Assembly (NCBI RefSeq): GCF_003123745.1
Contig: NZ_QETB01000001.1
Location: 372,001-436,000 of the forward strand
DNA from: Ancrocorticia populi
Lineage (GTDB): Bacteria > Actinomycetota > Actinomycetes > Actinomycetales > Actinomycetaceae
Direction of reading: 5' to 3'
DNA length: 64,000 bases
The notes beneath the pieces were generated by a model. The model made no database searches. It was not told where the DNA came from and saw only the letters and a list, made by a program, of their open reading frames with translations. Shown here piece by piece: positions 11,319-24,905 of the stretch. A program made the translations under genes and the position numbers. How positions within the stretch are numbered: the first letter of the stretch is position 1; every line of letters starts with the position of its first letter.

Positions 11319-11399
11319 TCCATCGTCAGTGCAGCGTCTTACACGGTAAGGTGATTGAGCCGAAGTTTTCGGTCTTCAGTACTTCTCAAGGAACTAGTT

Positions 11400-11405
11400 T
11401 AGAAT
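11400..11405 (+). promoter_or_regulatory. -10 box of the DsbA-like gene (leaderless type)
   Basis: TAGAAT ends exactly 6 nt before the ATG at 11412, and no ribosome-binding sequence is present. Confidence 0.55.
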
Positions 11406-11411
11406 TCAGCT

Positions 11412-12296
11412 ATGGCATCTCGAAACACTCCCGGCACGTCTGGGCAGAACCTCACCAAGCAAGAGCGCCGCGAGCAGGCGCGCGAGGCAGCGCGGAAGCT
11501 GCAGGAACAAGAAGAAAAGCGCGCGAAGCGGAACAAGATTCTTGCGATCGTTGGCGCCATAGCTCTTGTGGCCGTGATTGCGCTGGCAGTTGTGCTCATC
11601 GTGCGTTCGGGTTCCTCGGATAACTCGACCGGTGAAGGCACGGAATCTTCAGAAGACTGGGCTGATTTCACGCGTGCGGATTCAGTTTTCACGGCGGAGA
11701 GCACACCGGAGAACGTGACTGATCAGGGTGGTATCACCGTGGGTTCCAGCCTTGAGGCTGGAACTGTTAACGAGGGTGCTCCGGAGGTAGACATTTACTT
11801 CGATTTCTTGTGCTCATGGTGTAACCGCCTCGAGAATGAGTACTCGGAGGATCTCGCCCAGATGGCCAAAGATGGGGAGATCACCTTGGTGTACATGCCC
11901 GTTGCCATCATGGGAGAGGACTTCTCCACACAGGGAGCAGCGGCCGATTTCTTCATGGCTGAGAATGCCCCAGAGTACTTCCTAGATTTCCACAACACTT
12001 TGTTCGAGGAGAAGACTAATCCTCTCTTCTTGGATGAGAATTCTGACCAGACCCTCCCGACCATCGATGACATCCTTGAGGTGGCAGAGGAAGTGGGCGT
12101 GCCGGATGCAACCGTGGCTGATCTTGAAACCGCTATCAACGATGGTACTTACGACGCCACGATCGAAAGCGCCTACGAGCAGTGGACCGCCAACGGCCAA
12201 ACCGGCACCCCTGGCGTGATCATCAATGATCGCCAGTTGGCTGATTGGACCGAAGGCAAGCTGACCAAGTACGCGGCGGAGGCGGCTGCCGAGTAA
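11412..12296 (+). CDS. Membrane-anchored DsbA-like thiol-disulfide oxidoreductase
   Basis: A 294-residue protein. Residues 1-42 are charged and cytoplasmic and are followed by one membrane helix (ILAIVGAIALVAVIALAVVL). A Ser/Glu-rich linker leads to a thioredoxin fold of the DsbA/thioredoxin_4 type, with the active-site CSWC in IYFDFLCSWCNRLE and the cis-proline loop TGTPGVIIN. It should act outside the membrane in disulfide formation of exported proteins. A hairpin and then tRNA-Thr follow. Confidence 0.92.
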   Translation: MASRNTPGTSGQNLTKQERREQAREAARKLQEQEEKRAKRNKILAIVGAIALVAVIALAVVLIVRSGSSDNSTGEGTESSEDWADFTRADSVFTAESTPENVTDQGGITVGSSLEAGTVNEGAPEVDIYFDFLCSWCNRLENEYSEDLAQMAKDGEITLVYMPVAIMGEDFSTQGAAADFFMAENAPEYFLDFHNTLFEEKTNPLFLDENSDQTLPTIDDILEVAEEVGVPDATVADLETAINDGTYDATIESAYEQWTANGQTGTPGVIINDRQLADWTEGKLTKYAAEAAAE

Positions 12297-12308
12297 GCTT
12301 TCTCGCAA

Positions 12309-12345
12309 CTTGCCAAGTTGGCCCTACAGGGGCGATTCTGGCAAG
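12309..12345 (+). terminator. Hairpin after the DsbA-like gene
   Basis: CTTGCCA and TGGCAAG pair, with GCCCT and GGGGC pairing inside, starting 13 nt after the stop. No T-tract follows, so it may be an inefficient terminator or an RNA end-stabilising hairpin in front of the tRNA. Confidence 0.4.
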
Positions 12346-12376
12346 ATATAGGGCGCTGCGAGTTCGCAGTGTCTGC

Positions 12377-12452
12377 GCCACCTTAGCTCAGTTGGTAGAG
12401 CAGCTGTCTTGTAAACAGCAGGTCATCGGTTCGAGTCCGATAGGTGGCTCCA
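12377..12452 (+). tRNA. tRNA-Thr (anticodon TGT)
   Basis: The acceptor stem pairs GCCACCT with AGGTGGC. The D arm is TAGCTCAGTTGGTAGAGCA, the anticodon loop CTTGTAA has anticodon TGT, and the T arm contains GGTTCGAGTCC. CCA is encoded at the 3' end. It ends 1 nt before the convergent arginase gene. Confidence 0.97.
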
Positions 12453-12453
12453 C

Positions 12454-13332
12454 TTAGTTCGTCAGAGGGGCGCTGCCCAGCAGGTTCTGAAGGAACATGA
12501 CATTGCGGGGGATGAATTCGGCAACTGTCAGCCCAACCACATCGTAAGCCGCAGCAATATCGTCAATCACCCGGCGGGCCTGCTCCGCCAAGAGCCCTCC
12601 CTCATCAAAACCAAGCCCGAGTTGGACCTGATTGGCATCCACCGTGTCCACGTCAAAGTGAATGGCTACCTTCGATGCGCCGGTGCCGGCCAACCAATTC
12701 AACAGAATATCGGAGGTATCGCGAAGGTCCTCTGGAGAGAAAGAGGAAAGTCCCCATGAGGCGATGTTCGGGAAGTCGTCTGCGGTCCAAGAATGAAGGC
12801 CCGCAAGCGCAATCTTGCTTGGGTCCAGCAGCGCCGGTAGTGCGTCTGTGAAGGCGGCATCTACCTTGCCCAAGAGAGCCGAAACTGCCATTGCGTGGTA
12901 GCCAGGGTAATCACTTTCAGGCGTTCCCACGTCCGGGTGTGAATCGATCCAGACCATCGCGAGATCGCTGCCGTACCGGCCTGCCAACCACGAGAAGGGC
13001 GCGACGCTGACGGAGCAATCTCCGCCCACGGTAAAGATCCGCTCGGGGTCGTGGCGCTTGAGCAGCGCGTTGGCGGCTTGAAGCTGCTCAAGCAAGATCT
13101 CGCGATTCTCGATTCCGCCGGACCCTTCATCGTCCGGAATGTTCATCGGCACTGGAACCGTTTCGGTTGGCCCGGAGTGAGGTGGGAGCGTCGCCTCAAT
13201 GACTTTAGTTCCAACGGCGTAGCCGAGCCGTGCCTGATCAGAGGGCAGCTCGTTGAAGGGTAAGGGATAGTTCTCGGAGCCAGCGCCCTGCCATTGTGGC
13301 CAGATGAGCCGGAGCGTCTGCGCTGAAGTCAT
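12454..13332 (-). CDS. Arginase/agmatinase-family (ureohydrolase) protein
   Basis: A 292-residue ureohydrolase fold. The binuclear-manganese motifs are GGDCSVSVAP, IDSHPDVGTP and HFDVDTVD. The first is normally GGDHS, so the His ligand is replaced by Cys, a variant I associate with a subgroup of bacterial arginase-family proteins. The substrate is therefore uncertain (arginine, agmatine or a formimino/guanidino compound). The ATG follows TAGGCT by exactly 6 nt on the minus strand. AGGAG is present but only 1 nt from the ATG, so a leaderless start is favoured. Confidence 0.85.
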   Translation of the reverse strand: MTSAQTLRLIWPQWQGAGSENYPLPFNELPSDQARLGYAVGTKVIEATLPPHSGPTETVPVPMNIPDDEGSGGIENREILLEQLQAANALLKRHDPERIFTVGGDCSVSVAPFSWLAGRYGSDLAMVWIDSHPDVGTPESDYPGYHAMAVSALLGKVDAAFTDALPALLDPSKIALAGLHSWTADDFPNIASWGLSSFSPEDLRDTSDILLNWLAGTGASKVAIHFDVDTVDANQVQLGLGFDEGGLLAEQARRVIDDIAAAYDVVGLTVAEFIPRNVMFLQNLLGSAPLTN

Positions 13333-13371
13333 GCTCCTAGCCTAATCGCGTAGCCGCTTCGGAGCTGGGAA

Positions 13372-13974
13372 CTATGAGAGCTGGAGGGTTGTGAGGCAGG
13401 TGGCGTCGTCGTCCTCAATCGTCGAAATATCCACGGAACCGGACTTGCCCTCGTGCTCAACGTTCAACTCAGCTTCGATTCCCTTCGGGAGCCAAACGCC
13501 AACAAAGCCGTTATCGAAGCTGGAAAGGGTCTCGTCCACGATCGTCTCGCCGGTGTCCGCATCCACGATCTGAACGTCAAACTCCTCGTTGCTCAGCTCG
13601 CCCATGCAGGTGGTGAGGCTGTGGAAGTAACAATCGTGGGTCTGATCAACATAGGGGGCGAAGGAGAGGTAGAACTGATCCTCTGGCAGCGCCATCGGGG
13701 TCTCTTCGCCCGACGCGGTGGTGAACACGACTTCGCTCGGGCGTACCGAGGCAAGGAGATCCTCCGGCCGCTCAGCCACCGGGGCCTGATCCAACGCGTC
13801 CACGATTTCCGCAGCGTCCAGATCCTCTAGGCCGTGGGAGGCAAGTACTTCGGTGAGTTCGTTCGTGGTGGGTGCCGGTGTGGACGTTTCTTCTTCCGAC
13901 GACGAACAGCCCGCCAACCCCAACGCTGCGACGAGGAGCGCGGTGCCAAGGGACGTTGCTTTGCGGATCTTCAT
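13372..13974 (-). CDS. Secreted lipoprotein of unknown function
   Basis: A 200-residue protein. The N-terminus MKIRKATSLGTALLVAALGL ends in the lipobox LAGC, so the mature protein should be lipid-anchored at Cys 23. It is acidic and Thr/Glu-rich after the lipobox, with two further cysteines (CYFHSLTTC) that could form a disulfide. I do not recognise the family. The start at 13974 is preferred over an upstream start because GGAGG stands 8 nt before it. The annotated promoter is at 14030-14057. Confidence 0.8.
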   Translation of the reverse strand: MKIRKATSLGTALLVAALGLAGCSSSEEETSTPAPTTNELTEVLASHGLEDLDAAEIVDALDQAPVAERPEDLLASVRPSEVVFTTASGEETPMALPEDQFYLSFAPYVDQTHDCYFHSLTTCMGELSNEEFDVQIVDADTGETIVDETLSSFDNGFVGVWLPKGIEAELNVEHEGKSGSVDISTIEDDDATCLTTLQLS

Positions 13975-14029
13975 GGGGTTGCCTCCGGTTGGGGTTGGGT
14001 CAAACAATTGATTAGTCAAGTCCACCGCA

Positions 14030-14057
14030 AGTATAAGAAAGTTACATACGGGGTAAA
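14030..14057 (-). promoter_or_regulatory. Promoter of the lipoprotein gene
   Basis: On the minus strand -35 TTTACC and -10 TATACT are 16 bp apart, which gives a leader of about 50 nt carrying the GGAGG site. Confidence 0.5.
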
Positions 14058-14090
14058 TGGGAATTTGGACCTAGTTTCGGTGGGTCGGGC

Positions 14091-14096
14091 TATAGT
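14091..14096 (+). promoter_or_regulatory. -10 box of the methyltransferase gene (leaderless type)
   Basis: TATAGT ends exactly 6 nt before the ATG at 14103. The promoter faces away from the lipoprotein promoter in the same 128-nt gap. Confidence 0.55.
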
Positions 14097-14102
14097 TGGG
14101 CC

Positions 14103-15119
14103 ATGGCGTCAATCCTGAAAACAGTTCTCCGTCGCGGATGGGTGAAGCCGCTGGGCATTATGGCTAGGTGGTTGCCGGGATATCTTCGAGTTGACTTCAT
14201 CAGTGCAGGGCTGCAGTCCGGGATCCTTCAATATCTCAATCAGGGTTCGGCCACGTCGAAGCAAGTGGCACAACACTTCGGGTATGACATGCCGATGATC
14301 GAGGGACTCGAATCCTGGCTTGGGGTTGGTGTCCAGATCGGCGAGCTTCGCCTAGCGCGTGGCCGGTACTCGCTTCGGGGGCGCCGAGTAAAGACGCTGC
14401 TCAAGCCTGAGAACGATCCGATCGCGGCGTTCTTCGAGGAATTCACCAACTTGAACCATCGGCTGGTTATGGAGACTCCCGAGCGGCTGAAGCGTGGGGA
14501 ATGGTTCACGCTGGCCGATGCGGACCCGGATACCGTGGCGCGGACCTCGCGGGCTGGTGAGCCGTGGCTGGCCAGCGCCATCGGGGAGGTGGTGCCGGCA
14601 GAGGGTGCTTTCCGGTTGGTGGAAGTGGGCTGCGGATCCGGCGCCCATATCAAGACAGCCGCGGAGATAAACCCGCGCTTAACGGCTCAGGGGATCGAGC
14701 TACAGGAGTCGGCCGCCGCGCAGGCACGCACGAATATGGCCGAATGGGGGCTTAGTGATCGGGTGGAGATCGAGGTGCGTGACGTCCTAGACCGCGAGGG
14801 CGATGGCACGGCCGATCTTGTGACGTTGCATCAAAACATCTACTACTTCCCAGTCGAGGAACAGTCCGCGGTTCTGCGTCATCTGGGAACGTATCTTGCC
14901 CCGGGCGGCAAGCTGCTTGTTACCACCGTGGTGCGAGACAGCGGCTCGGGATCGGTGGCACTGGACCTGTGGGGTGCCATGACTGAGGGTGCCTCGCGGC
15001 TGCCCACTCCGAAGGAACTGGAAGATCGCTTGGCTGCTGCTGGTTACGCGGACGTCGGCACGCAGAAGCTAGGGCCGGACGGCATGTATTACGCGGCTAC
15101 GGGTACCTGGCGCGGGTAG
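14103..15119 (+). CDS. SAM-dependent methyltransferase (O-methyltransferase-like)
   Basis: A 338-residue class I methyltransferase. An N-terminal helical or winged-helix part (ATSKQVAQHFGYDMPMIEGLE) is followed by the SAM-binding motif I LVEVGCGSGAHIKTAAEINP, the acidic residue after strand 2 in QGIELQ, and motif IV DLVTLHQNIYYF. The N-terminal dimerisation-like domain resembles small-molecule O-methyltransferases. The substrate is unknown. The gene stands alone and is predicted to be leaderless. Confidence 0.85.
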   Translation: MASILKTVLRRGWVKPLGIMARWLPGYLRVDFISAGLQSGILQYLNQGSATSKQVAQHFGYDMPMIEGLESWLGVGVQIGELRLARGRYSLRGRRVKTLLKPENDPIAAFFEEFTNLNHRLVMETPERLKRGEWFTLADADPDTVARTSRAGEPWLASAIGEVVPAEGAFRLVEVGCGSGAHIKTAAEINPRLTAQGIELQESAAAQARTNMAEWGLSDRVEIEVRDVLDREGDGTADLVTLHQNIYYFPVEEQSAVLRHLGTYLAPGGKLLVTTVVRDSGSGSVALDLWGAMTEGASRLPTPKELEDRLAAAGYADVGTQKLGPDGMYYAATGTWRG

Positions 15120-15171
15120 GATCCTACGGTTCGGTGTTACTTACCTCTAGTTGTCGTTATTGCAGATAAGT

Positions 15172-15177
15172 TAGAGT
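15172..15177 (+). promoter_or_regulatory. -10 box of the toxin-antitoxin operon (leaderless type)
   Basis: TAGAGT ends exactly 6 nt before the ATG at 15184. TTGTCG at 15151-15156 is a possible -35 box with a short 15-bp spacer. Confidence 0.5.
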
Positions 15178-15183
15178 TGATGC

Positions 15184-15564
15184 ATGACAACACAGTTGCA
15201 TGCATCAACTATCGACCCTCGTGATCCCGATGTTCGTTCCGATGCTGAGCGCCTCGCTAGCAGGCTGGATGGAGGTTCGCCGGTTGAGGCTGCTCTGCGG
15301 TCGATGCTGAATGACGTGGCCGGCGGCTCGCGGGTGGTTATACTGCGCGTCGAAGATGAAGTGACACCTTCTCAGGCAGCCGAGTTACTTGGCGTCACGC
15401 GCCAATATGTAGATCGTCTTTGTGAGGATGAGGTCCTCCCGTTTCGGAGGCTACCTGAAAGCCGACACCGGCGTATCCGGGTTCAAGACGTAGTAGACGT
15501 GGCCACCGAGCGAGAGCGGCGCCGAACCGGTGGCGATGCCATCCGGGCGGCGCTTGGCGCTTGA
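15184..15564 (+). CDS. Helix-turn-helix (excisionase-type) antitoxin
   Basis: A 126-residue protein. The centre (VTPSQAAELLGVTRQYVDRL to ESRHRRIRVQDVV) is a MerR/excisionase-type DNA-binding domain. It overlaps or abuts the PIN-domain gene downstream, the standard layout of a toxin-antitoxin operon whose antitoxin binds its own promoter (inference). The C-terminus probably contacts the toxin. Confidence 0.88.
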   Translation: MTTQLHASTIDPRDPDVRSDAERLASRLDGGSPVEAALRSMLNDVAGGSRVVILRVEDEVTPSQAAELLGVTRQYVDRLCEDEVLPFRRLPESRHRRIRVQDVVDVATERERRRTGGDAIRAALGA

Positions 15565-15568
15565 TGCT

Positions 15569-16141
15569 GTGGCTCGGTTACAACGGATTTTCATTGACAC
15601 CAGTGAGCTTTTCCCATTCACGATTATGGATGCGTTACTCACTCTGTCGGAAGACTTCATCTTCAGTTGGGTCTGGACCGACGAGGTGCTTGAAGAGTGG
15701 GAGAAGGTAATCGTTCGAGAGGGTCTCAGGTCTGTCGAATCAGCCCGCTCCGTATCCGACGCTGTTCGTGCGCATTTCAATGAGTATCGAATCGATCCGA
15801 TACTCTATCGCGGTCGAGCGACCCCAAATCTCTCACCGGACCCGGATGATCGCCTTCATGCAGCTGCGTGCGTCTATGGAGATGTAGATGTACTCCTAAC
15901 TCGGAATCATAGAGATTTTGCGGCACCGGCCATTGGAGAGGCTGGAGTGCAAGTGATGTCTTCGGATGAGTTTCTTCGCGGTCGACTTAGTCATAGGCGT
16001 CGGTCTGTCATAGAGTCGATTACGCGCACTGCAAATCGTAAGTTGAGTCCGCCGATGTCGCCCATTGAGCTGGCCAATGCAATGGCGAACGCAGGTACAC
16101 CCAAGTTTGCGGCTCGGCTCAAAGCGCTTCTTCCTGAATGA
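15569..16141 (+). CDS. PIN-domain toxin (VapC-like ribonuclease)
   Basis: The PIN fold acidic residues are visible in RIFIDTSE, WTDEVLEEW, DPDDRLHAA and LTRNHRDF, so the nuclease site is intact. About 190 residues. The exact start is unclear: GTG 15569 is 4 nt after the antitoxin stop (likely coupled), while ATG 15536 or GTG 15530 would overlap the antitoxin. It probably cleaves RNA and is held inactive by the upstream HTH protein. Confidence 0.85.
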   Translation: MARLQRIFIDTSELFPFTIMDALLTLSEDFIFSWVWTDEVLEEWEKVIVREGLRSVESARSVSDAVRAHFNEYRIDPILYRGRATPNLSPDPDDRLHAAACVYGDVDVLLTRNHRDFAAPAIGEAGVQVMSSDEFLRGRLSHRRRSVIESITRTANRKLSPPMSPIELANAMANAGTPKFAARLKALLPE

Positions 16142-16170
16142 AAGAGAGGTCGCAAGGGGGAGGGCGCGGC

Positions 16171-16374
16171 CTATTCCGTGCCTAGCTCGGGGAGGAACAC
16201 ATCTTCGATCGCGCAACTGAACGTTGCGGCGATTCGGAAGGCAAGTGGGAGTGAGGGATCGAATCGGCCCTTTTCGATCGATATGACCGTCTGGCGGCTG
16301 ACTCCGAGCTCATCGGCGAGCCTCTGCTGGGACCAGCCGTTGACCGCACGCAGCTCCGATAGCCGGTTCCTCAT
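16171..16374 (-). CDS. XRE-family transcriptional regulator
   Basis: A 67-residue protein that is almost entirely a Cro/CI-type helix-turn-helix (WSQQRLADELGVSRQTVISIEKG), ending IAATFSCAIEDVFLPE. The ATG overlaps the stop of the upstream membrane protein by ATGA. Small XRE regulators of this kind commonly pair with a small membrane protein; the large inverted repeat at the promoter is the likely operator. Confidence 0.9.
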   Translation of the reverse strand: MRNRLSELRAVNGWSQQRLADELGVSRQTVISIEKGRFDPSLPLAFRIAATFSCAIEDVFLPELGTE

Positions 16375-16850
16375 GAGCGCCGCTTCTCCCACAGGTAGGC
16401 CGCCACGAACGTGAGCACCATCAGCCCACACACCGCGATAAGGGTGAGAGAGACTTCGGGGACGTTAGAGGTGAGCGCGGCTCCGATCCCTACGGCAGGG
16501 AAAGTGATCAGGCAAGTTGTCTGGGAGGCCTTGTCCAGCCACGTGGTTTCAACGCTGTATTCCGGCGTTCGGATCGCGCCCGGGATACTATTTCTATCGA
16601 CGACGACGATCCACACCAGCGCCACACATCCCGGTGCAAGGCAGACGGTGTAGATCGCGAACACCCAGACGGAAGCCATCTCGAAGCTGCCGGTAAGGGC
16701 CACGAGTACGCCGGCGAGCACCGCGACGGCAATGCCTGGTAGCGCGGCGAACGTGAGTGCGGAATGCCTCTTGCTCCCAAAGCGGGCGTGCCCGAATCGG
16801 TAGGGCTGAGCCGGTTGATCACCGTGGTTTGTGCTAGTTTCCGGGTTCAT
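16371..16850 (-). CDS. Four-helix membrane protein, partner of XRE regulator
   Basis: A 159-residue protein with four hydrophobic segments (about residues 32-54, 58-80, 112-128 and 133-153). No enzymatic motif is visible. It is cotranscribed with the XRE gene by overlapping stop and start. I do not recognise the family; similar pairs occur in many actinobacteria and firmicutes. Confidence 0.75.
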   Translation of the reverse strand: MNPETSTNHGDQPAQPYRFGHARFGSKRHSALTFAALPGIAVAVLAGVLVALTGSFEMASVWVFAIYTVCLAPGCVALVWIVVVDRNSIPGAIRTPEYSVETTWLDKASQTTCLITFPAVGIGAALTSNVPEVSLTLIAVCGLMVLTFVAAYLWEKRRS

Positions 16851-16861
16851 GCGTCGGTCCT

Positions 16862-16890
16862 ACTACATCTGTTCATGTCGGGCGTGTCAA
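16862..16890 (-). promoter_or_regulatory. Promoter of the membrane protein/XRE operon
   Basis: On the minus strand -35 TTGACA (16885-16890) and -10 TGTAGT (16862-16867) are 17 bp apart. The -35 box lies in one arm of the inverted repeat at 16885-16920, so binding there would block RNA polymerase. Confidence 0.6.
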
Positions 16891-16920
16891 GCTCACTTTA
16901 CAAGTCAAGTAAGCTTGACA
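16885..16920. repeat. Large inverted repeat, probable operator between divergent -35 boxes
   Basis: TGTCAAGCTCACTT and AAGTAAGCTTGACA match at 13 of 14 positions with an 8-nt spacer. Each arm ends in an outward-facing TTGACA. The right arm also fits a rightward promoter (TTGACA, 18 bp, TGGTAT). The XRE protein encoded by the leftward operon is the natural candidate to bind here. Confidence 0.6.
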
Positions 16921-16985
16921 CAAGGCTCGATTTGAACGTGGTATCAGATCGCGTGGGCGGTCCTCTCGCCTTGGGCGTGCCCCTC

Positions 16986-17014
16986 CTACCGTGAGCGTGA
17001 CTCTTCTATGGAGT
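16986..17014 (+). repeat. Left direct repeat flanking the defence island
   Basis: A 29-bp element starting CTACCGTGAG and containing GTGACTCTTCT recurs at 25099-25127 in the same orientation with 3 differences. The two copies enclose the A+T-richer island. Confidence 0.6.
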
Positions 17015-17113
17015 TCCCCAAGGGTGAAATGGGACCCTCCTCGTGCCAACCTCGGCTCAAGCTAATGTTGCTGTAATCTATTGGAAGCACCGATGCTGCC
17101 CCAGAGTAGTGAC

Positions 17114-17359
17114 ATGGCGGACTCGGGACTTTTGAATGCGGCGCAACACCTAGGTGACGCTGAGAAGATGGAGATGATCTCCGTGCTATGGGACTCCATA
17201 GATCATTCAAAGCGCGAACCCCCAGAAGACGTGCTTTCCACGGTGCGAGAGCGAGCAAAGGATGCTGATATTCACCCGCAAGATCAGATGACTTCTGAAG
17301 AGTTCTGGGCACGTATCGAGCGGCGCGATTCGATCGCCTATTTGCGGCGGGTCGAGTAA
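17114..17359 (+). CDS. Addiction-module component (putative antitoxin-like protein)
   Basis: An 81-residue protein resembling the 'putative addiction module component' family: an N-terminal helix LLNAAQHLGDAEKMEMISVLWDSI, then a charged middle and the SEEFWARIERR end that corresponds to the sweEv motif. Such proteins usually sit in front of a RelE/ParE toxin, but none follows here. ATG 17114 fits the family best; ATG 17093 is possible. It lies inside the repeat-bounded island. Confidence 0.7.
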   Translation: MADSGLLNAAQHLGDAEKMEMISVLWDSIDHSKREPPEDVLSTVRERAKDADIHPQDQMTSEEFWARIERRDSIAYLRRVE

Positions 17360-17609: not shown

Positions 17610-20213
17610 TCAGGTGTCGAGTTGCATCTGGGAACTATGAGTTTCGTGCAGCACGTTTGACTTCATGATTTCTGAGGATGGGTACATGATGTATTCGACA
17701 CCGCTGGCGCTCGCGAGTTCCTCAGCCGCGGCGGCTTTTGCTTTCACCAGAGCATCGTCAATCTTGTTGTCTCCCTTCACCTCAATGAGGCGCAAAACTC
17801 CGTCGCTCATGCGGGCTACGAAGTCAGGGTAATAATGACGTATTCGCTGTGAATCTGCGTCATAGTACTGGATTGAAAGGTCGCCTTGATTCGAAGTGAA
17901 CATGCCCGTGAAGTAAATCTCTTGGACTTTGCTATCCTCGATGTACTGCCAGAAAAGTTCACGTTCAGGCTTCGAGTCGAAACAGTAGGTATCGGCGTGG
18001 AAGCTCTTCGCAACTTGATCGGGCTTGAGACCCTTATCTTTGTTGTCAAGAATTAGATCTGGTTTTGTATGGAAGATGTAATACCCACGATCCTTCGGTT
18101 CCCGCAGGAGAGTCATTGAGGTGTCCTCCGTGCGGAGCTCAGACCTCACTTCGTAGAGCTCATGAAAGATACGGGGAATGATTACATCGTCAAGAATTTC
18201 ATTGTACCGATTGATGTACTCCATTACGGCCACAGGCCCGTCCACGGACTCGCGGACGATTCGATCAACAAGTACCGGCGAGATGTTCAGATAGCGTGCA
18301 ACTTCGCCGCATAGCGAGAACAAGCTGTAGGTAACTTGTTCCCGGTATTCGTCAGCGTTTCTTGTCTTGACTGCAGTATTGCTCGTCAGCCTGCTCTTTT
18401 CGTAAAGAACAGCGGCGTACTTGTCCATATCGAGATCCCCAAGCCCGAAGTTGATCGGAGCTTGGTAACCGTTCTCGATTAGCTCGTAAGAGCGCGAGAT
18501 CTTTTTGAGCTTGATCGTTCGGGGAGGTGGAACCACGCGAACTTCGCGCGAAACGGTCTGGGACTTTTTGTCGTTTGTCAGCCCATCCACATCCATGTTG
18601 AAGTTCTTCTCTAACTCATCATCGAGAATGTCAAAGTTCGGCTTGGATAGATACACGCTAGCTGTTTGCTGTTCTTCGGTGATCTGGCGCAGGCACCGCA
18701 TCGTGGCTTGAAGGATGAATATCTTGGACTTTGGACTGCGATACATGGCCACGCCGAAGAGGGAACGGCAGTTCCACCCTTCTCGCCCCTTGCCCACAAG
18801 GATAAGGAATTGCTTTTCGTTACCTACACTCCCCGCAACGTCGAGATTGTTGAAGTTGCGGATGTCTTCATCCTTTGTCAGCTTTTGATCGCCAACGTTT
18901 ACTAGCACCTTTGACGCATCAACATCCAAATCGGCAAGGATTCGTTCCACTGCAGGACGAACTTCGTCCTGTGCTTCTGCAATTGTCGAAGCGAAGATCG
19001 CGAGTTTCGGGGTGAGTCCCTCGTAGGTCTCTCCGCCATATTTGCCCCAGAAGTCCTGGACAATCGCTCTCAGAAACTCTTCGCTCTTTACATTTTCAAA
19101 TGCTTGGAGGAAAGCCTCTTTCAGATAGCCCTTCTGTATGGACTCGCTCAGTCCATAGGCGTAAACCACCTCCGGGAGTGGCTGCTTGTTCACGTACGGA
19201 GTGCCGGTGTAGTTATAACAGGCGACGATGGAGGTATTCTCGGCCAGAAGGTTGATAGTGTCCCTGAGGCTGGTTCTTGCCGCACTCTTAGACCTCAGCT
19301 GTTTTTCGAGGTTAGCCCCGAAGAGATGGTGGGCTTCATCAACATAAACTCCGAGTTGCGAGAGCCGACCCAGCTTCTGGAAGCGCTGGTTCTCTATGAG
19401 CGCGGCTTCATCGGCAACGTCGTCACTCATATCGCCATAGATATCCGCAAGAATAGAGCTTCCGCTAAAGAGCTTCTCCCCGGGAGTGTCTTCTTTGCGC
19501 TTCTTCTTGACGACGATCTTCTGAGTGTTTGAAATGACGATGTTGAAGTCTGAATCGTCGAGCACGTGCAGAGTTGTCCCGGAATCATCGAGGAAGTGTA
19601 TCTTGATGTTTTGATCCAGCACCGCGGCGTACTCAGGCGGGACCACCTTAGTCTTATCGAAGGTGACGATCTCGCGTAGCGATTCCAGCACCGTCTTATC
19701 AGGGGCGAACACCAACGCATTGTGGCAGAACCGCTTGTCTTTCGGGTACTTTCTTGCAAGGAGGAACTCATAGAAGATGCACGTGGCCATGAGGATGGTT
19801 TTTCCCAAGCCCATGGTGAGTGCGTAGATATAGTTCGGATAAGACTCCCGGTACCTCTCCATTTGCTTGAACAGTTTGTCCGTTCGGAACTCGGTCGGGT
19901 CATCAAACAATGTGGCCTGATCATTGACTGCGTAGTAGGAGGCCTCCGAGAATTCGTCCTCACGATTACGCCAAGAATCAAACATATCCGCAACCTGAGC
20001 GTTGTTCATGAATTCCTTGATGAACACGTAGATCTCGAGTGCTTCGAACTGAGGACCACGAAGAAACGCGTCAGGATTTTCTGAGGCGTCGTTATATGCG
20101 AGGAAGTTCCGGGTCAGATCGTTGTAGTGTGAGCGGATCTTGCGTTGGTTGCGGGCGTAGAAGTGCTTTAACTGCTCGTAGAATGCGAAGTCCTCGTTGA
20201 GATTGACCCTCAT
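17610..20213 (-). CDS. Type III restriction enzyme Res-like helicase-endonuclease
   Basis: An 867-residue SF2 ATPase. Walker A is MGLGKT (near 134-139), Walker B VDEAHH near 300, motif III YNYTGTPY, and motif VI region QATMRCLRQ. The C-terminus carries a PD-(D/E)XK nuclease: YYPDFVARMSDG and LIEVKGDN. Helicase followed by a terminal nuclease is the plan of type III Res subunits. Start and stop overlap with mod (ATGA). Res needs Mod for sequence recognition in known type III systems. The gene reads visibly more A+T-rich than the core genes of the window. Confidence 0.9.
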   Translation of the reverse strand: MRVNLNEDFAFYEQLKHFYARNQRKIRSHYNDLTRNFLAYNDASENPDAFLRGPQFEALEIYVFIKEFMNNAQVADMFDSWRNREDEFSEASYYAVNDQATLFDDPTEFRTDKLFKQMERYRESYPNYIYALTMGLGKTILMATCIFYEFLLARKYPKDKRFCHNALVFAPDKTVLESLREIVTFDKTKVVPPEYAAVLDQNIKIHFLDDSGTTLHVLDDSDFNIVISNTQKIVVKKKRKEDTPGEKLFSGSSILADIYGDMSDDVADEAALIENQRFQKLGRLSQLGVYVDEAHHLFGANLEKQLRSKSAARTSLRDTINLLAENTSIVACYNYTGTPYVNKQPLPEVVYAYGLSESIQKGYLKEAFLQAFENVKSEEFLRAIVQDFWGKYGGETYEGLTPKLAIFASTIAEAQDEVRPAVERILADLDVDASKVLVNVGDQKLTKDEDIRNFNNLDVAGSVGNEKQFLILVGKGREGWNCRSLFGVAMYRSPKSKIFILQATMRCLRQITEEQQTASVYLSKPNFDILDDELEKNFNMDVDGLTNDKKSQTVSREVRVVPPPRTIKLKKISRSYELIENGYQAPINFGLGDLDMDKYAAVLYEKSRLTSNTAVKTRNADEYREQVTYSLFSLCGEVARYLNISPVLVDRIVRESVDGPVAVMEYINRYNEILDDVIIPRIFHELYEVRSELRTEDTSMTLLREPKDRGYYIFHTKPDLILDNKDKGLKPDQVAKSFHADTYCFDSKPERELFWQYIEDSKVQEIYFTGMFTSNQGDLSIQYYDADSQRIRHYYPDFVARMSDGVLRLIEVKGDNKIDDALVKAKAAAAEELASASGVEYIMYPSSEIMKSNVLHETHSSQMQLDT

Positions 20214-22000
20214 GCCTGAACCTCGACCTCCAGCGATTCCGAGAGCAGATCAGTGATCTTCACTTTGATGGTTCCTGCAGTATCGGGTACCTCGTAGTAG
20301 CCCTTCACGAAGGTCTTCTTGTCCGGTATATCGGTAACAGAAGGTTCCATCACAACGCCGTCATAGTTCCAATCGATCACTATTGACTCAACCAACTGAC
20401 GCCAGTCCTCAATGTATTCGCGCTGTAGGGAGAGCTTCTGCATGAGATTGAGTGGGTAGAACGAACGGATGACGAGCCGATTACCTTCGAGGACTACTTC
20501 CGCCTCGGCTTCTCGTTTGAACTCCAGTTCCTTTTTGTCTTTAAGGATATCGACGACGGCGACGTCAACCTTGTACTCCGACAACTCAGATTCAAGGGAT
20601 GCCTTAAGATCGGGTTCGTGTCCCATGCACACGAGGGTTACCTGTTCTACTGGCTGAGAGGGATTATCGGCCTTGCGCTTCTCATAGGTCTTATACGGTA
20701 GATTATCTGTGATTACTTTCAGGTCGGCCTTGGTGGCTATTCGATTGACGGGCATGATCTTGACCATGCGGCCATCAAGGGTGCCGTCCCACAAATTGCT
20801 CTGTTCATAGGGCTGAATCTCCAACGCTTCCATGAGGAGGTCCCGCGCTTGGACGGGATTGCGGAACAGGTCATAGTTGTTGACGTTGTAAACCTCAAAG
20901 CCGGTGTAGAAGGTATCGGGATCTGAACCATCGACATCCAGAGATTCCTGTTGTTCTCCGAGGCTGGTCGCGACTGAGAGGAGCCTTTTCGTGGTGGTTT
21001 GGATTGCTCCCAAATTGATGTCTGCACCGATGAACCGACGCCCGAGTTTCATCGCGACAGCCTGCGTTGTCCCGGAACCCATGAAGCAGTCGAAGACGAT
21101 GCCCTCAGGTGAACAGGATGACGAAACTATCCGCTCCAGTAGACGCTCGGGTTTCTGGGTGGGATATGCCAAGCCTTCTTTATCTGAATTGTTAAGCTTG
21201 TCAATCGTCCAAACGTCGTCAATATGCCTCCCGTCAGCTATGGCTTCGTCGAGGTAGCGTTTCACCCTCTTGCCAGCTCCGCCGTCAGAGAGTACGTACT
21301 TGCGACCTGATTCTTCCTCAATCAGAACTTTTTGCTTTCGGGCTTTTGCATATTCCTCGGGTGACGACCATGCGAGTTTAAATGGTTCAAAATATGGAGA
21401 ATTTGTCTTCGTGTAGAAGAGAATGGTGTCGTGACGGCGATTGAAATAGCTTGAGTTTTTGCGATTCCACCCAGAGTACTGCCATACTATTTCGTTTTGA
21501 AATAGTTTTGGTCCGAAAACTTCATCCATGAGCATCCGCAGATGGTGACTCTTGTGCCAGTCACAGTGGAGATAGATGCTGCCCGTGTCTGAGAGTAGCT
21601 CCCGGCAGAGGGTTAGCCGCTCGTACATGAACTGCAAATACTGATCATTCGTCCAAATGTCGCCGTACTGCTTATCTTCGAAGGATGAAGAATCGTTGGC
21701 AACAGTGGAGTCCTTCAGCTTGATCTTCTTCTTATAGTCCGCTTTGGAATCGAAAGGTGGATCGATATAAATGAGGTCAACTTGGCCGCGGTATTCGTGC
21801 AGAAGGTGGCTCATCACCTGCAGGTTGTCGCCCCAGAAGAGCTTGTTGATCCAGCCGTCAGTCTCAGTGCCGTAGCGCTCACGAAGCTGAGCGGGGTAAT
21901 AGACCGTTCCACGATAGGGGCGTTTTCCGGTCCATTGCAGCTGCGGGTAGCCTTTAATAGGTGGGCGGACATCGAATTCGAATGACTGTTGTTCCTGCAT
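20210..22000 (-). CDS. Type III-like site-specific DNA adenine methyltransferase (Mod)
   Basis: Counted from ATG 22000, where GGAAAG lies upstream, the protein has 596 residues. Catalytic motif IV LIYIDPPFDS is at about 77-85, and the SAM-binding motif FDCFMGSGTT at about 303-312. This order (DPPF first) makes it a beta-class N6-adenine methyltransferase, with the target-recognition region between the two motifs. The C-terminal region after about 350 is probably the Res contact. It starts 13 nt after the helicase stop and overlaps res, so the three genes form one operon. Confidence 0.92.
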   Translation of the reverse strand: MQEQQSFEFDVRPPIKGYPQLQWTGKRPYRGTVYYPAQLRERYGTETDGWINKLFWGDNLQVMSHLLHEYRGQVDLIYIDPPFDSKADYKKKIKLKDSTVANDSSSFEDKQYGDIWTNDQYLQFMYERLTLCRELLSDTGSIYLHCDWHKSHHLRMLMDEVFGPKLFQNEIVWQYSGWNRKNSSYFNRRHDTILFYTKTNSPYFEPFKLAWSSPEEYAKARKQKVLIEEESGRKYVLSDGGAGKRVKRYLDEAIADGRHIDDVWTIDKLNNSDKEGLAYPTQKPERLLERIVSSSCSPEGIVFDCFMGSGTTQAVAMKLGRRFIGADINLGAIQTTTKRLLSVATSLGEQQESLDVDGSDPDTFYTGFEVYNVNNYDLFRNPVQARDLLMEALEIQPYEQSNLWDGTLDGRMVKIMPVNRIATKADLKVITDNLPYKTYEKRKADNPSQPVEQVTLVCMGHEPDLKASLESELSEYKVDVAVVDILKDKKELEFKREAEAEVVLEGNRLVIRSFYPLNLMQKLSLQREYIEDWRQLVESIVIDWNYDGVVMEPSVTDIPDKKTFVKGYYEVPDTAGTIKVKITDLLSESLEVEVQA

Positions 22001-22013
22001 AATTCTTTCCGGG

Positions 22014-24905
22014 TTAGTTACGGGCCATACCGCAGTAGAAATGGAAATCGCACTCGTCACATGTCTTCTGCTTCTTTGCGCGAGTGTTGTATTGCTTGTG
22101 GAGGATTCGGTGGACGACGTCGTCGAAAACGTCAATGGTCGCGTCTACGGAAGTCTTGGTATAAGGGAACGTGATGGTCGGGACGCCATCCTCTTCGCCC
22201 GTGTAGTAGAGGTGCATCTTCGAGACCTTCTCGCCAGTGCGTTGTTCTACGAGGTGCGCGTACACGTGGAGTTGCCTGCGATATCGCTCAAGGAGTTCGC
22301 TCTCGCTGTGAATATCGGGCTTCTTGGAGGTCTTGAAATCGACGATCTCAACTGTGTTATCACTGCCACGGATGAGATCGATGGTGCCGTCGATGATGTA
22401 GTCACGTTTTACTAGGCTGACGTTGACCTCGGCCTCCTTGATGGCGTCCCAATTGCTGCGCTGGTTTGAGACGTACCGATTCACTTGAGCGAGTGCAGTG
22501 TTGCGTTGCGCTTCAGCCAGATAGGTGTGCTCAGCTCTAGAGAGATATACATAGTTCATCTCGAACCACTGAGCGATGTTGCTGGGAGTGATGAGTTGTT
22601 GTTCGCCGCGAAGTGCGGCTCGGTGGATGTCCTCAATAGTTTGGTGGACTAATCGGCCGAAGAGCATGGCGTTGACTCGTATCGGCATGAATGCTAAGTC
22701 TCGATAGAACTTGTATTGGAGCGAGCACGTCTCATACACCGTGATATGGGAGGTGAAGGAGAACGCCTCCTTGATATTGACGTCCTTGACGCTTTCTAGG
22801 GTTAGCTTGGCTGGGTCGAATTCACCGCCATGGATATCGGGCAGGGTTCGATATACCTCTTTGAAGTACTTGCTGGGGGTACGGGAGTTTTCATCGCAGG
22901 TTAGGACCAGAAGGTTCTGTGCCCTTGAGAACGCGGTGTAATACTGACGCCAGAAGTCAAAGAACTTGATCTGGTCTTTCGGCTCAAATGCGGAACGGTG
23001 GAAGTATTGTTCGGACACCTTGTCGATCAGTGAGTTGCTCTGCTTTCGGGGCACGCTGTGCAACGAATCAACAATGACAACCGGGAACTCCATTCCCTTG
23101 GACTGGTGGATTGTCAGAAACGAGACGCAGCCACTTGGCGCATACTCTGAATCGTCTTCGTATTCGGCTATGCCGCCCTCGTATAACAAACGCAGATATA
23201 GGTTGAAGAACTTCTCTGTGGATTGATCTATGCGGCGTTTCCCGTGCACGAGCGTGGGGGAGAGAAGGTTGATCCCATGGAGGTACTCGAATTTTCCTAT
23301 GATGTGGCTGAGCTGAGCTAGGTTGCGGCTCGGGCGAAGATCCACCACACCTGAGTCCATCGGCCGTTCGAGTATCCCGCTGAACGGCTCGAACTGGAGC
23401 ATCATATAGAAGAGCCCCGAGTATGCGTAATCGGTTGGCTGTTTCAGCTGGAAGTGCGATGACCCATAATGCTGTACCCATTTAAGAAACTTCAGGTTCT
23501 CCGGCCTCTTTAAGTGCTCGGTTGCCTCAGCAAGACATGAGGTCAGATATGCGCGGTAATCATCCTTCAGCCATTCGAACTCGTCCTTCTCAAAGGACTG
23601 CACATAGTTGGGGAAGAGTATTAGCAGAATGCCAATCGCGAGCTTGATCTCCGCACGCTCAAAGAAGAGAGCTGAACGTGGAGAGTAGACGTTGATCCCG
23701 TTCTGTTCTAGATACTTGGCTAATCCGACGGCGTTTCTGTGTTTAACAGAGTTGAAGAGGAAGGCCAACTGGTTGTAATCGGTGAGTGTGCCTGATTTCT
23801 CTAGGGAGCGAATGAACGAGAGTATCTCGCGATACCACTCGTCGGTATTGTCTTGACTGGACACTTTGATGACAGTTGGGGTCTCTGGCTCTACGCCGCC
23901 CGCGGCCTTGATAGTTTTGGAATATCGATAACCGTTCCACTCAAACTTGAAGCGAGCTCCAGACGTCGTCTCCATCCAGTTGTTGTAGAAGATAACGATC
24001 TCTTGCGTTGACCGGTAGTTGTCCACAAGCGGGATGACTTGGCAGGACCGGCCCTCGAACTTGCTTGGGAACTCGAGAATGTTGCGGATTGTTGCACCAC
24101 GAAAACGATAGAGACCTTGGTCATCGTCTCCCACCACACAGATATTTTGGTGGTTCTCACCGAGTAAGAAGACGAGCTGTTCCTGGATGTAATTCGTGTC
24201 TTGATACTCGTCGATCATGATGTACCGAAGTGCCTCAGCGTATTTGCCCAGCACTGCTGGATTTTCGCTCAACACCCGATATGCCTCGGTTTGGATCGAG
24301 GAGAAATCAAGCAAATTTTCTTCGGCAAGTAGATCTTGATAGGTTCCGCAGATCTTGCCGAGAACGCTCATTTCCGCGTCTTGAGACGTCTCTAGACTTG
24401 AAACACTCACCATCTCTTCGGCGATCGTGTTAGCCCATGAGCAGATTTGGAGCGACTTCTTCCACATGCCTACATTAGGAAAGACGAGCTCGCTGTTCTC
24501 AAGGTTGCTGAACCGGTGGAAGTTCTGGAAGATCAAGTAGCTTTGATCGAAGCTGTCAAGGATACGAAAACCGTTCTTCAGCCTTGTGTATTCGAGGTTT
24601 TCCTTGAGTATGCGCAGGCACAGCGAATGGAAAGTCCCCACATACATATCGTTGATATTGGCAGTGATCCCACGTTCATCGAGCTCGTTAGTGATGCGAG
24701 TGATGAGTTCCTTCGCCGCCTTCTCGGTGAAGGTAGCGATCATGATTTCTTCGGGTCTTACGTCTTCTTCTTCGATTAGGTAGATGGCGCGCTGAACCAA
24801 CGTGAAGGTTTTTCCTGTTCCCGGTCCAGCAGTAATAAGCACCGGCCCGTCCACCGCTGCGATGGCACGTTTCTGGGCCTCATTAGCTCTTCCAAAGTCA
24901 AACAC
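22014..24905 (-). CDS. UvrD-like SF1 helicase fused to Fe-S PD-(D/E)XK nuclease
   Basis: A 963-residue protein starting at GTG 24905. UvrD/Rep motifs: Walker A AGPGTGKT (26-33), motif Ia ATFTEKAAKEL, motif II IDEYQDTN, motif III VVGDDDQGLYRFRGA, motif V VSFLTIHQSKGMEFPVVIV and motif VI YTAFSRAQNLLVL. The C-terminal about 250 residues are a RecB/Cas4/AddB-like nuclease: GTIDLIRG and VEIVDFKTSKK. Cysteines in YETCSLQY and CDECDFHFYC fit a 4Fe-4S staple. So helicase and nuclease motors are on one chain, like a shortened AddAB. It is the first gene of the defence operon. Confidence 0.92.
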   Translation of the reverse strand: MFDFGRANEAQKRAIAAVDGPVLITAGPGTGKTFTLVQRAIYLIEEEDVRPEEIMIATFTEKAAKELITRITNELDERGITANINDMYVGTFHSLCLRILKENLEYTRLKNGFRILDSFDQSYLIFQNFHRFSNLENSELVFPNVGMWKKSLQICSWANTIAEEMVSVSSLETSQDAEMSVLGKICGTYQDLLAEENLLDFSSIQTEAYRVLSENPAVLGKYAEALRYIMIDEYQDTNYIQEQLVFLLGENHQNICVVGDDDQGLYRFRGATIRNILEFPSKFEGRSCQVIPLVDNYRSTQEIVIFYNNWMETTSGARFKFEWNGYRYSKTIKAAGGVEPETPTVIKVSSQDNTDEWYREILSFIRSLEKSGTLTDYNQLAFLFNSVKHRNAVGLAKYLEQNGINVYSPRSALFFERAEIKLAIGILLILFPNYVQSFEKDEFEWLKDDYRAYLTSCLAEATEHLKRPENLKFLKWVQHYGSSHFQLKQPTDYAYSGLFYMMLQFEPFSGILERPMDSGVVDLRPSRNLAQLSHIIGKFEYLHGINLLSPTLVHGKRRIDQSTEKFFNLYLRLLYEGGIAEYEDDSEYAPSGCVSFLTIHQSKGMEFPVVIVDSLHSVPRKQSNSLIDKVSEQYFHRSAFEPKDQIKFFDFWRQYYTAFSRAQNLLVLTCDENSRTPSKYFKEVYRTLPDIHGGEFDPAKLTLESVKDVNIKEAFSFTSHITVYETCSLQYKFYRDLAFMPIRVNAMLFGRLVHQTIEDIHRAALRGEQQLITPSNIAQWFEMNYVYLSRAEHTYLAEAQRNTALAQVNRYVSNQRSNWDAIKEAEVNVSLVKRDYIIDGTIDLIRGSDNTVEIVDFKTSKKPDIHSESELLERYRRQLHVYAHLVEQRTGEKVSKMHLYYTGEEDGVPTITFPYTKTSVDATIDVFDDVVHRILHKQYNTRAKKQKTCDECDFHFYCGMARN

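What the first reader, a model, noticed from the sequence alone, without database searches (positions are those of the whole stretch)
17610..24905. Three-gene defence operon: UvrD-Fe-S nuclease, beta-class Mod, type III Res
Seen: three adjacent genes with 13 nt between the first two and an ATGA overlap between the last two. The first joins a full UvrD/Rep helicase core to a Cas4/AddB-like nuclease with an Fe-S cysteine set. The other two look like a type III restriction-modification pair, with the Mod DPPF and FMGSGTT motifs and the Res Walker motifs and terminal PD-(D/E)XK. Known: type III systems consist of Mod and Res only. Inference: the helicase-nuclease adds a function, perhaps degrading ends made by Res, or a second layer of attack on DNA. 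I do not know this exact trio as a named system.
Basis: partly seen in the sequence, partly recalled or inferred. Interest (0 to 1): 0.75.

Follow-up and report, generated by a model that had tools for sequence, protein, structure and literature searches.

The report
Restriction operon with extra DNA shredder
Three neighbouring genes encode a DNA-marking enzyme, a DNA-cutting enzyme and a motor-driven DNA-degrading enzyme that travel together between distant bacteria, probably to destroy invading DNA; the combination was described in print before, but what the third enzyme does appears untested.

Summary
On the minus strand lie H (UvrD-type helicase fused to a Cas4-like nuclease with four invariant cysteines, 24905-22014), Mod (22000-20210) and Res (20213-17610), with a 13-nt gap and an ATGA overlap. 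The trio recurs as a unit: all 14 plasmid records with a near-full-length Res of this clade carry H-Mod-Res in order, as do 13 of 15 viral Res loci and 3 of 5426 E. coli genomes. H and Res distances correlate at r=0.98 over 28 loci. Between two E. coli copies H and Res stay mostly above 90% alike, while the middle of Mod falls to 12-42%. H also sits beside unrelated Mod-Res pairs, and some phages carry the Mod alone. The gene trio is not new: Hudaiberdiev et al. 2017 described UvrD-Cas4 fusions whose commonest neighbours are type III Mod and Res and predicted a defence role; Murray et al. 2021 described another three-gene type III layout whose helicase is said to lack a nuclease. Eight full-text searches showed no functional test of H. 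Most likely mechanism (inferred): Mod-Res cuts unmodified DNA, and H unwinds and shreds the ends like a dedicated RecBCD/AdnAB.

The parts
22014..24905 (-). H: UvrD-type (SF1) helicase fused to a Cas4-like PD-(D/E)XK nuclease, 963 aa
22821..24905 (-). H motor, residues 1-695: GPGTGKT 27, DEYQDT 232, GDDDQ 259, HQSKG 600, YTAFSR 656
   Evidence: superposes on UvrD, PcrA, AdnB
22017..22787 (-). H nuclease, residues 707-963, with C727, C949, C952, C958 (Fe-S cluster inferred)
   Evidence: closest: Cas4-family ACE1
22001..22013 (-). 13-nt spacer between the H stop codon and the Mod ATG
20210..22000 (-). Mod: beta-class amino-methyltransferase, 596 aa from the ATG at 22000
21176..21475 (-). Hypervariable middle of Mod, about residues 176-275, taken as the target recognition region
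   Evidence: conservation along A3 falls to 0.31-0.47; the corresponding part differs between two E. coli copies
20210..20213 (-). ATGA overlap of Mod stop and Res start
17610..20213 (-). Res: SF2 helicase-like ATPase with C-terminal nuclease, 867 aa
17679..18005 (-). Res nuclease region, about residues 737-845 (E750, D797, E811, K813 invariant in 16 of 16)

Best explanation
A three-component, ATP-dependent restriction-modification system of the type III kind. Mod recognises a short site and methylates it for self-protection (base and site unknown). Mod with Res senses unmodified sites and Res cuts. H then loads on the ends, unwinds the DNA with its UvrD motor and degrades it with its Cas4-like nuclease, so that cut invader DNA cannot be re-joined, recombined or repaired. 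Shown: the three genes, their intact active-site residues, conserved order, H and Res diverging in step, and variation concentrated in the middle of Mod. Inferred: the restriction phenotype, the order of events, H acting on Res-made ends, the Fe-S cluster and the 3'-5' polarity (from the UvrD family).
For: Order H-Mod-Res in 14 of 14 plasmid records with near-full-length Res, 13 of 15 viral Res loci and 3 of 3 E. coli genomes. H-Res distance correlation 0.981 against at most 0.409 in 2000 permutations. H and Res stay fixed while the middle of Mod changes, so H is not tied to one target site. H is shared by at least three Mod-Res classes. H folds as an AdnB/UvrD motor plus Cas4-family nuclease, the layout of end-degrading enzymes. 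Relatives of H lie beside NurA and HerA, an RNase_T exonuclease, and genes that read by eye as SbcD/SbcC and RadC.
Against: No functional datum for H. Type III Mod-Res pairs work without such a protein in the cases of PMC8259958; related but diverged Mod-Res pairs without H exist (Ideonella; Paenarthrobacter; Acinetobacter; G928). 5 of 8 plasmid H records outside this class have no Mod-Res beside H. Among 19 viral Mods of this clade, 5 lack a whole H. Relatives share ancestry, which inflates the correlation.
Confidence: 0.5

Rival explanations
1. H is a structural or motor subunit of the restriction complex itself: it helps Mod-Res to move, to communicate between sites or to make the first cut, rather than degrading ends afterwards.
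For: Tight packing of the genes and near-perfect H-Res co-divergence would fit a physical complex. The Res model is weakly type III-like, so it might need help.
Against: Res keeps its own ATPase and nuclease residues in 16 of 16 sequences; H also serves quite different Mod-Res classes. In Eco86II, a three-gene system with another helicase, the third protein was not detected in the cutting fraction (PMC8259958).
Confidence: 0.18
2. H is an independent second layer: a Gabija-like or abortive effector triggered by free DNA ends or by phage inhibition of RecBCD, merely carried in the same cassette.
For: PADLOC hits of the motor to GajB and RTasHel models. H occurs without Mod-Res in some records (searches show mixed contexts). 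A preprint abstract proposes that Gabija restricts phages that antagonise RecBCD (PMC12407980, listing only).
Against: The order and co-divergence with Res are tighter than a loose cassette would need; no OLD or TOPRIM partner among the nine window proteins scanned.
Confidence: 0.15
3. H is a safety and repair factor: it processes accidental breaks that Res makes in the host genome and so lets the system be carried.
For: AddAB, AdnAB and RecBCD, which share its layout, act in break repair. The trio moves on plasmids and Hudaiberdiev et al. [quoted passage not shown]
Against: No recombination partner was found in the operon, and a general repair role does not require an H specific to the Res clade.
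Confidence: 0.12

Closest known systems
UvrD-Cas4 fusion with type III Mod and Res (Hudaiberdiev et al. 2017, PMC5704561; passages and section 8 read)
   Same: UvrD-like SF1 helicase fused to a pfam12705 nuclease, next to type III Mod and Res; predicted defence role.
   Different: Nothing in layout that I can see; their figure and supplementary trees were not held, so identity of subfamily was not tested. Added here: counts of co-occurrence, co-divergence, change confined to the middle of Mod, fold.
Three-gene m4C type III systems Eco86II and BspHIV (Murray et al. 2021, PMC8259958; whole text)
   Same: An extra helicase-like ATPase gene directly 5' of mod and res.
   Different: Their third gene is described as having SF2 motifs and no PD-ExK or other nuclease motif. 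The E. coli version of the present trio was found in 3 of 5426 genomes, not in the held NCTC86 chromosome.
EcoP15I and other type III restriction-modification enzymes
   Same: Mod profile's best PDB match is EcoP15I Mod, 2.7e-33; Res has SF2 motifs and a C-terminal nuclease.
   Different: Third gene H; Res profile finds no PDB sequence at E<=1.
AdnAB, AddAB and RecBCD end-processing nucleases
   Same: SF1 motor followed by a PD-(D/E)XK nuclease; AdnB motor Z 24.6, rmsd 3.8, 596 aligned.
   Different: No heterodimer partner beside H; the nuclease is closest to the Cas4-family protein ACE1 (9iac, Z 16.5, rmsd 3.6, 229 aligned); coupled to a restriction-modification pair.

Membership tests
UvrD-Cas4 plus Mod plus Res (Hudaiberdiev 2017) | UvrD helicase fused to a pfam12705 nuclease | tested here: met
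   Pfam PF00580 and PF12705 in one protein
UvrD-Cas4 plus Mod plus Res (Hudaiberdiev 2017) | Mod and Res genes adjacent | tested here: met
UvrD-Cas4 plus Mod plus Res (Hudaiberdiev 2017) | Helicase falls in their single monophyletic branch | not tested
   their trees and sequences were not held
Type III restriction-modification | Beta-class Mod (motif IV, then target recognition region, then motif I) | tested here: met
   DPPF at 80, variable middle, FMGSGTT at 306; EcoP15I Mod best PDB match
Type III restriction-modification | Res with SF2 ATPase and C-terminal PD-(D/E)XK nuclease | tested here: met
   motifs invariant in 16 of 16; Pfam ResIII and TnsA-like N just above cut-off
Type III restriction-modification | Res shares the fold of EcoP15I Res as a whole | tested here: inconclusive
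   model pTM 0.42; SF2 helicases and an HsdR fragment (3h1t Z 15.9, rmsd 8.0, 316 aligned) lead the list
Type III restriction-modification | One-strand methylation of an asymmetric site and ATP-dependent cutting about 25-27 bp away | not testable with these tools
   needs methylome and enzymology
Three-gene m4C type III (Murray 2021) | Third gene 5' of mod is an SF2-type helicase without a nuclease motif | tested here: not met
   H is SF1 UvrD with PD-(D/E)XK; their description, their sequence not seen
Three-gene m4C type III (Murray 2021) | Homology to the Eco86II locus of E. coli NCTC86 | tested here: inconclusive
   NCTC86 not among 3 of 5426 genomes found, but DNA searches miss distant relatives and the locus itself was not retrieved
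Three-gene m4C type III (Murray 2021) | N4-cytosine methylation | not testable with these tools
   no methylome
Gabija | GajA OLD-family nuclease beside the GajB helicase | tested here: not met
   GajB models match the UvrD core of H; none of the nine window proteins scanned has an OLD or TOPRIM family

The most novel reading that the evidence does not exclude
The trio is a separate class of restriction system, cut and shred: Res and H form one functional unit, and a dedicated, host-independent RecBCD substitute makes each cut irreversible even when a phage inhibits the host's own RecBCD. Specificity is renewed by exchanging the middle of Mod while H and Res stay fixed.
Probability: 0.3. Interest if true: 0.65.

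Novelty: new member of a known kind. Interest (0 to 1): 0.42.

Why it matters
If H is a built-in degrader, restriction does not always rely on host RecBCD to finish off cut DNA, and phage RecBCD inhibitors would not rescue cut genomes. The association has been in print since 2017 without a functional test that I could find, and copies exist in E. coli (3 of 5426 genomes), so the question of what the third protein does can be tested directly. PADLOC's models see the Mod clearly and the Res only weakly (10 of 11 Res relatives match one model, best 1.1e-9), so such systems may be recorded as lone methyltransferases (my inference; I did not run the annotation programs).

Tried and rejected
Scans with H alone found nothing in genome contigs and viral contigs (6 and 3 stretches matched a peptide pattern, none a relative), because the patterns were too specific. 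The genus search found only the window's own genome.

Considered and rejected: (a) Gabija or DRT, from PADLOC hits: these reflect the shared UvrD core. (b) H as an ordinary UvrD, PcrA, Rep, AddA or RecB: below the cut-off of all 17 NCBIfam models matched. (c) Identity with the third gene of Eco86II: the published description differs. I could not retrieve the NCTC86 locus, and the DNA searches reach only DNA roughly 65-70% alike or more. (d) A whole-protein fold assignment for Res: the model is middling (pLDDT 71.5, pTM 0.42); EcoP15I Res was not among the 50 rows shown by either fold search, which excludes nothing. hhalign of Res against one Pfam-typical type III Res (Peribacillus) aligned only 193 columns, probability 88.8. 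(e) Regarding Mod as bound to H: phage contigs L134, L137 and L163 carry it alone.

Literature: eight answered full-text searches (one search looked for Eco86II only). I read whole: PMC8259958; section 8 and passages of PMC5704561; passages only of PMC2292703, PMC3702460, PMC12458937, PMC7365801, PMC5399273, PMC12707154 and PMC11514479. Other papers were seen as listings. Most subscription papers are not covered.

Full report
WHAT IS THERE. On the minus strand, 24905 to 17610, three genes are packed like one operon: H (963 aa), Mod (596 aa from the ATG at 22000) and Res (867 aa), with a 13-nt gap and a 4-nt ATGA overlap. The block has 50.8% G+C against 58.1% for the window and 58.9% and 58.6% in the stretches to its left and right, and the change is sharp, as expected for acquired DNA. 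H is present once in the 2.65-Mb genome; the other five hits are partial, at most 42% identical.

H. Pfam finds a UvrD helicase (1.3e-74), a PD-(D/E)XK nuclease (PF12705, 2.5e-22) and weaker Cas4 similarity (2.2e-7). It is below the cut-off of all 17 NCBIfam models that it matches. In 20 aligned sequences the nuclease residues and cysteines 727, 949, 952 and 958 are invariant. The predicted structure (pLDDT 83.0, pTM 0.78) superposes residues 1-695 on UvrD, PcrA and AdnB motors (4c30 Z 29.6, rmsd 3.0, 458 aligned; 9np6 AdnB Z 24.6, rmsd 3.8, 596 aligned) and residues 708-963 on the Argonaute-associated Cas4-family protein ACE1 (9iac Z 16.5, rmsd 3.6, 229 aligned). That the cysteines hold an Fe-S cluster is inferred from the Cas4/AddB pattern, which I recall.

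MOD AND RES. The Mod profile's best PDB sequence match is EcoP15I Mod (2.7e-33), then another Mod (6k0w, 5.8e-33), ahead of type II enzymes (MboIIA 3.5e-26). The middle of Mod is hypervariable while both ends are conserved. Res keeps SF2 motifs and a C-terminal nuclease in 16 of 16 sequences, but matches library type III Res only weakly and no PDB sequence at E<=1. Its predicted structure is middling (pLDDT 71.5, pTM 0.42); SF2 helicases and an HsdR fragment lead the fold lists.

PLASMIDS, PHAGES, E. COLI. Among 72,556 plasmid records H is found in 22, 19 with at least 80% coverage; Res in 25, 14 with at least 80%; Mod in 19, 15 with at least 80%. All 14 near-full-length Res records also hold H and Mod in the order H-Mod-Res, by the coordinates; in one (Spirosoma) two extra ORFs lie between H and Mod, and in one (NZ_KJ645709.1) H is annotated as two genes. 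The other 11 Res records are 10 truncated Enterococcus copies and one diverged pair in Ideonella (about 30% identity, order Res then Mod); none of the 11 is among the H records. The 15th Mod is the Ideonella one; the four partial Mods are in records without an H match. Of the 8 H records outside this class, two are Priestia, of which I opened one (a 989-aa Mod with DPPYNT and a 1069-aa Res); Peribacillus has a split H with a Pfam-typical type III Mod and Res; Annamia, Geminocystis, Nostoc, Fusobacterium and Natronococcus have no Mod-Res pair beside H. Of these, Geminocystis and Nostoc H are broken or cut short, and Annamia keeps a 39-residue piece of Mod 3.5 kb away. Viral contigs: of 15 Res loci, 13 (L109-L121; L114 and L115 look like the same sequence, and their H is cut by the contig end) have the trio, L108 begins inside Mod at the end of the held stretch and cannot tell, and L122 has Mod and a 151-residue piece of Res without H in the held stretch. 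Of 49 viral Mod loci, 19 are of this clade (48% or more over most of the length): 14 with H, three with Mod alone, one with a Res piece (the same contig as L122) and one with a 77-residue H remnant; the other 30 are more distant Mods, one of them with a 33% H (L165). Phages: H in 1 of 50,697 records, with Mod and Res and one ORF between. E. coli: 3 of 5426 genomes, each with all three genes.

WHOLE GENOMES. With the H profile: 2 of 199 relatives (E<=1e-150); at E<=1e-120, 3 of 396 in the window's phylum and 2 of 398 and 3 of 398 in two other phyla, each count including the genome at the centre. In these searches few candidates per genome were scored, so the counts are lower bounds. They give nine distinct genomes. 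H has Mod and Res beside it on one contig in six: the window's own; G069; G326 and G207, with Mod and Res of another class; G809; G585. In G590 H is split into two frames with Mod beside it at a contig end, and a full-length Res starts near the edge of another contig. In G1286 H lies beside an ORF that looks to me like the end of a Res, without a Pfam match, at a contig end. G1309 (28% identity) shows none. In the reverse direction 3 of 398 genomes have Res at 1e-60: G590 and G809, both with H, and G928 with a diverged pair (32-35%) and no H. Of seven genomes reached through H loci of genome contigs, four have Res of this clade; the other three (L022-L024, 43-45% H) do not.

CO-INHERITANCE AND SPECIFICITY. 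Over 28 loci with a full trio, pairwise protein distances correlate at 0.981 (H-Res), 0.82 (H-Mod) and 0.838 (Mod-Res); the largest of 2000 label permutations was 0.409, 0.434 and 0.384. I left out duplicate loci of the same contigs, loci with a cut or split H, and plasmid records that I had not fetched. Shared ancestry inflates such values, but the set spans three named phyla and mobile elements, so the genes have moved as a block. Two E. coli copies show how specificity changes: 40-column blocks of H are 0.82-1.00 identical and of Res 0.88-1.00, while Mod falls from 0.97 at its start to 0.12 in the middle and is 0.92 at its end.

HOW IT LIKELY WORKS. Mod gives site recognition and self-marking; Mod-Res cuts unmodified DNA; H degrades from the ends. 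The last step is inference. It rests on fold, on H staying fixed when Mod's middle changes, on H being shared among different Mod-Res classes, and on H relatives lying beside NurA and HerA, an RNase_T exonuclease and genes that read by eye as SbcD/SbcC and RadC. Against it: no functional datum, diverged Mod-Res pairs that lack H, and H records without Mod-Res.

WHAT IS KNOWN. Hudaiberdiev et al. 2017 (PMC5704561, section 8 read) described the UvrD-Cas4 fusion, its monophyly, its commonest neighbourhood (type III Mod and Res) and a predicted ancillary role in defence; they also noted a Dcm/Vsr context and stand-alone copies. Murray et al. 2021 (PMC8259958, whole text) described two-gene and three-gene m4C type III systems; their third gene is said to have SF2 motifs and no nuclease, to occur beside Mod and Res in more than 500 genomes, not to be needed for methylation, and was not seen in the Eco86II cutting fraction. 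The present trio fits the first description and, as far as their text goes, not the second. PADLOC 2.0 and NCBIfam gave no specific model for H. I found no experimental study of H.

VERDICT. A real, conserved, mobile three-gene restriction system by its anatomy; a new member of a described and, as far as I found, untested kind.

Noticed in passing
L134, L137, L163 (viral contigs): Full-length Mods of this clade (53-54% identity) on viral contigs without Res or H in the held stretch: possibly phage-borne self-protection against such systems.
   Followed up: partly
L183:6078-16590: NurA and HerA genes directly upstream of an H relative (35%) with its own Mod and Res: an end-processing set joined to a restriction-modification pair.
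   Followed up: partly
L165:451-12421: Viral contig with H relative (33%), a 1510-aa sacsin/NO VEIN-domain protein, Mod and Res in a row.
   Followed up: partly
L184:3562-13391: H relative (33%) between a gene that reads as RadC and a DUF4062/HATPase_c_4 protein, then Mod and Res.
   Followed up: partly
L022:8657-12880; L023:4588-8829: H relatives of another branch: one in a 1407-aa protein behind a part that looks RecQ-like by eye, one directly followed by an RNase_T exonuclease gene.
   Followed up: no
L016:8989-15666: Fusobacterium H relative (32%) directly followed by genes that read as SbcD and SbcC (by eye).
   Followed up: no
L101, L106 and the other truncated Enterococcus rows: Ten Enterococcus plasmid records hold only a truncated Res; the two opened have it beside IS1216 transposase genes, with no H or Mod annotated in the stretch.
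   Followed up: partly
window:24985-25026: Two 11-nt near-repeats (reading TA[C/T]ACCCGGTA on the minus strand) 31 bp apart upstream of H, possibly an operator; seen by eye, no significance test.
   Followed up: no
window:15184-16141 and 17081-17359: An HTH_17 gene followed by a PIN_3 gene, possibly a toxin-antitoxin pair; a 92-aa ORF downstream of Res reads like an addiction-module antitoxin but has no Pfam match.
   Followed up: no
L107:95-5156 and 9733-17027: The trio of G069 lies near genes that read as serine recombinases and a relaxase (by eye), suggesting a mobile element.
   Followed up: no
L021:12938-13843; L026:12889-13656; L174:11889-12629; L015:11915-13496: Some trios carry one or two extra ORFs between H and Mod; of the three scanned (L174, two of L015) none has a Pfam family above its cut-off.
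   Followed up: partly
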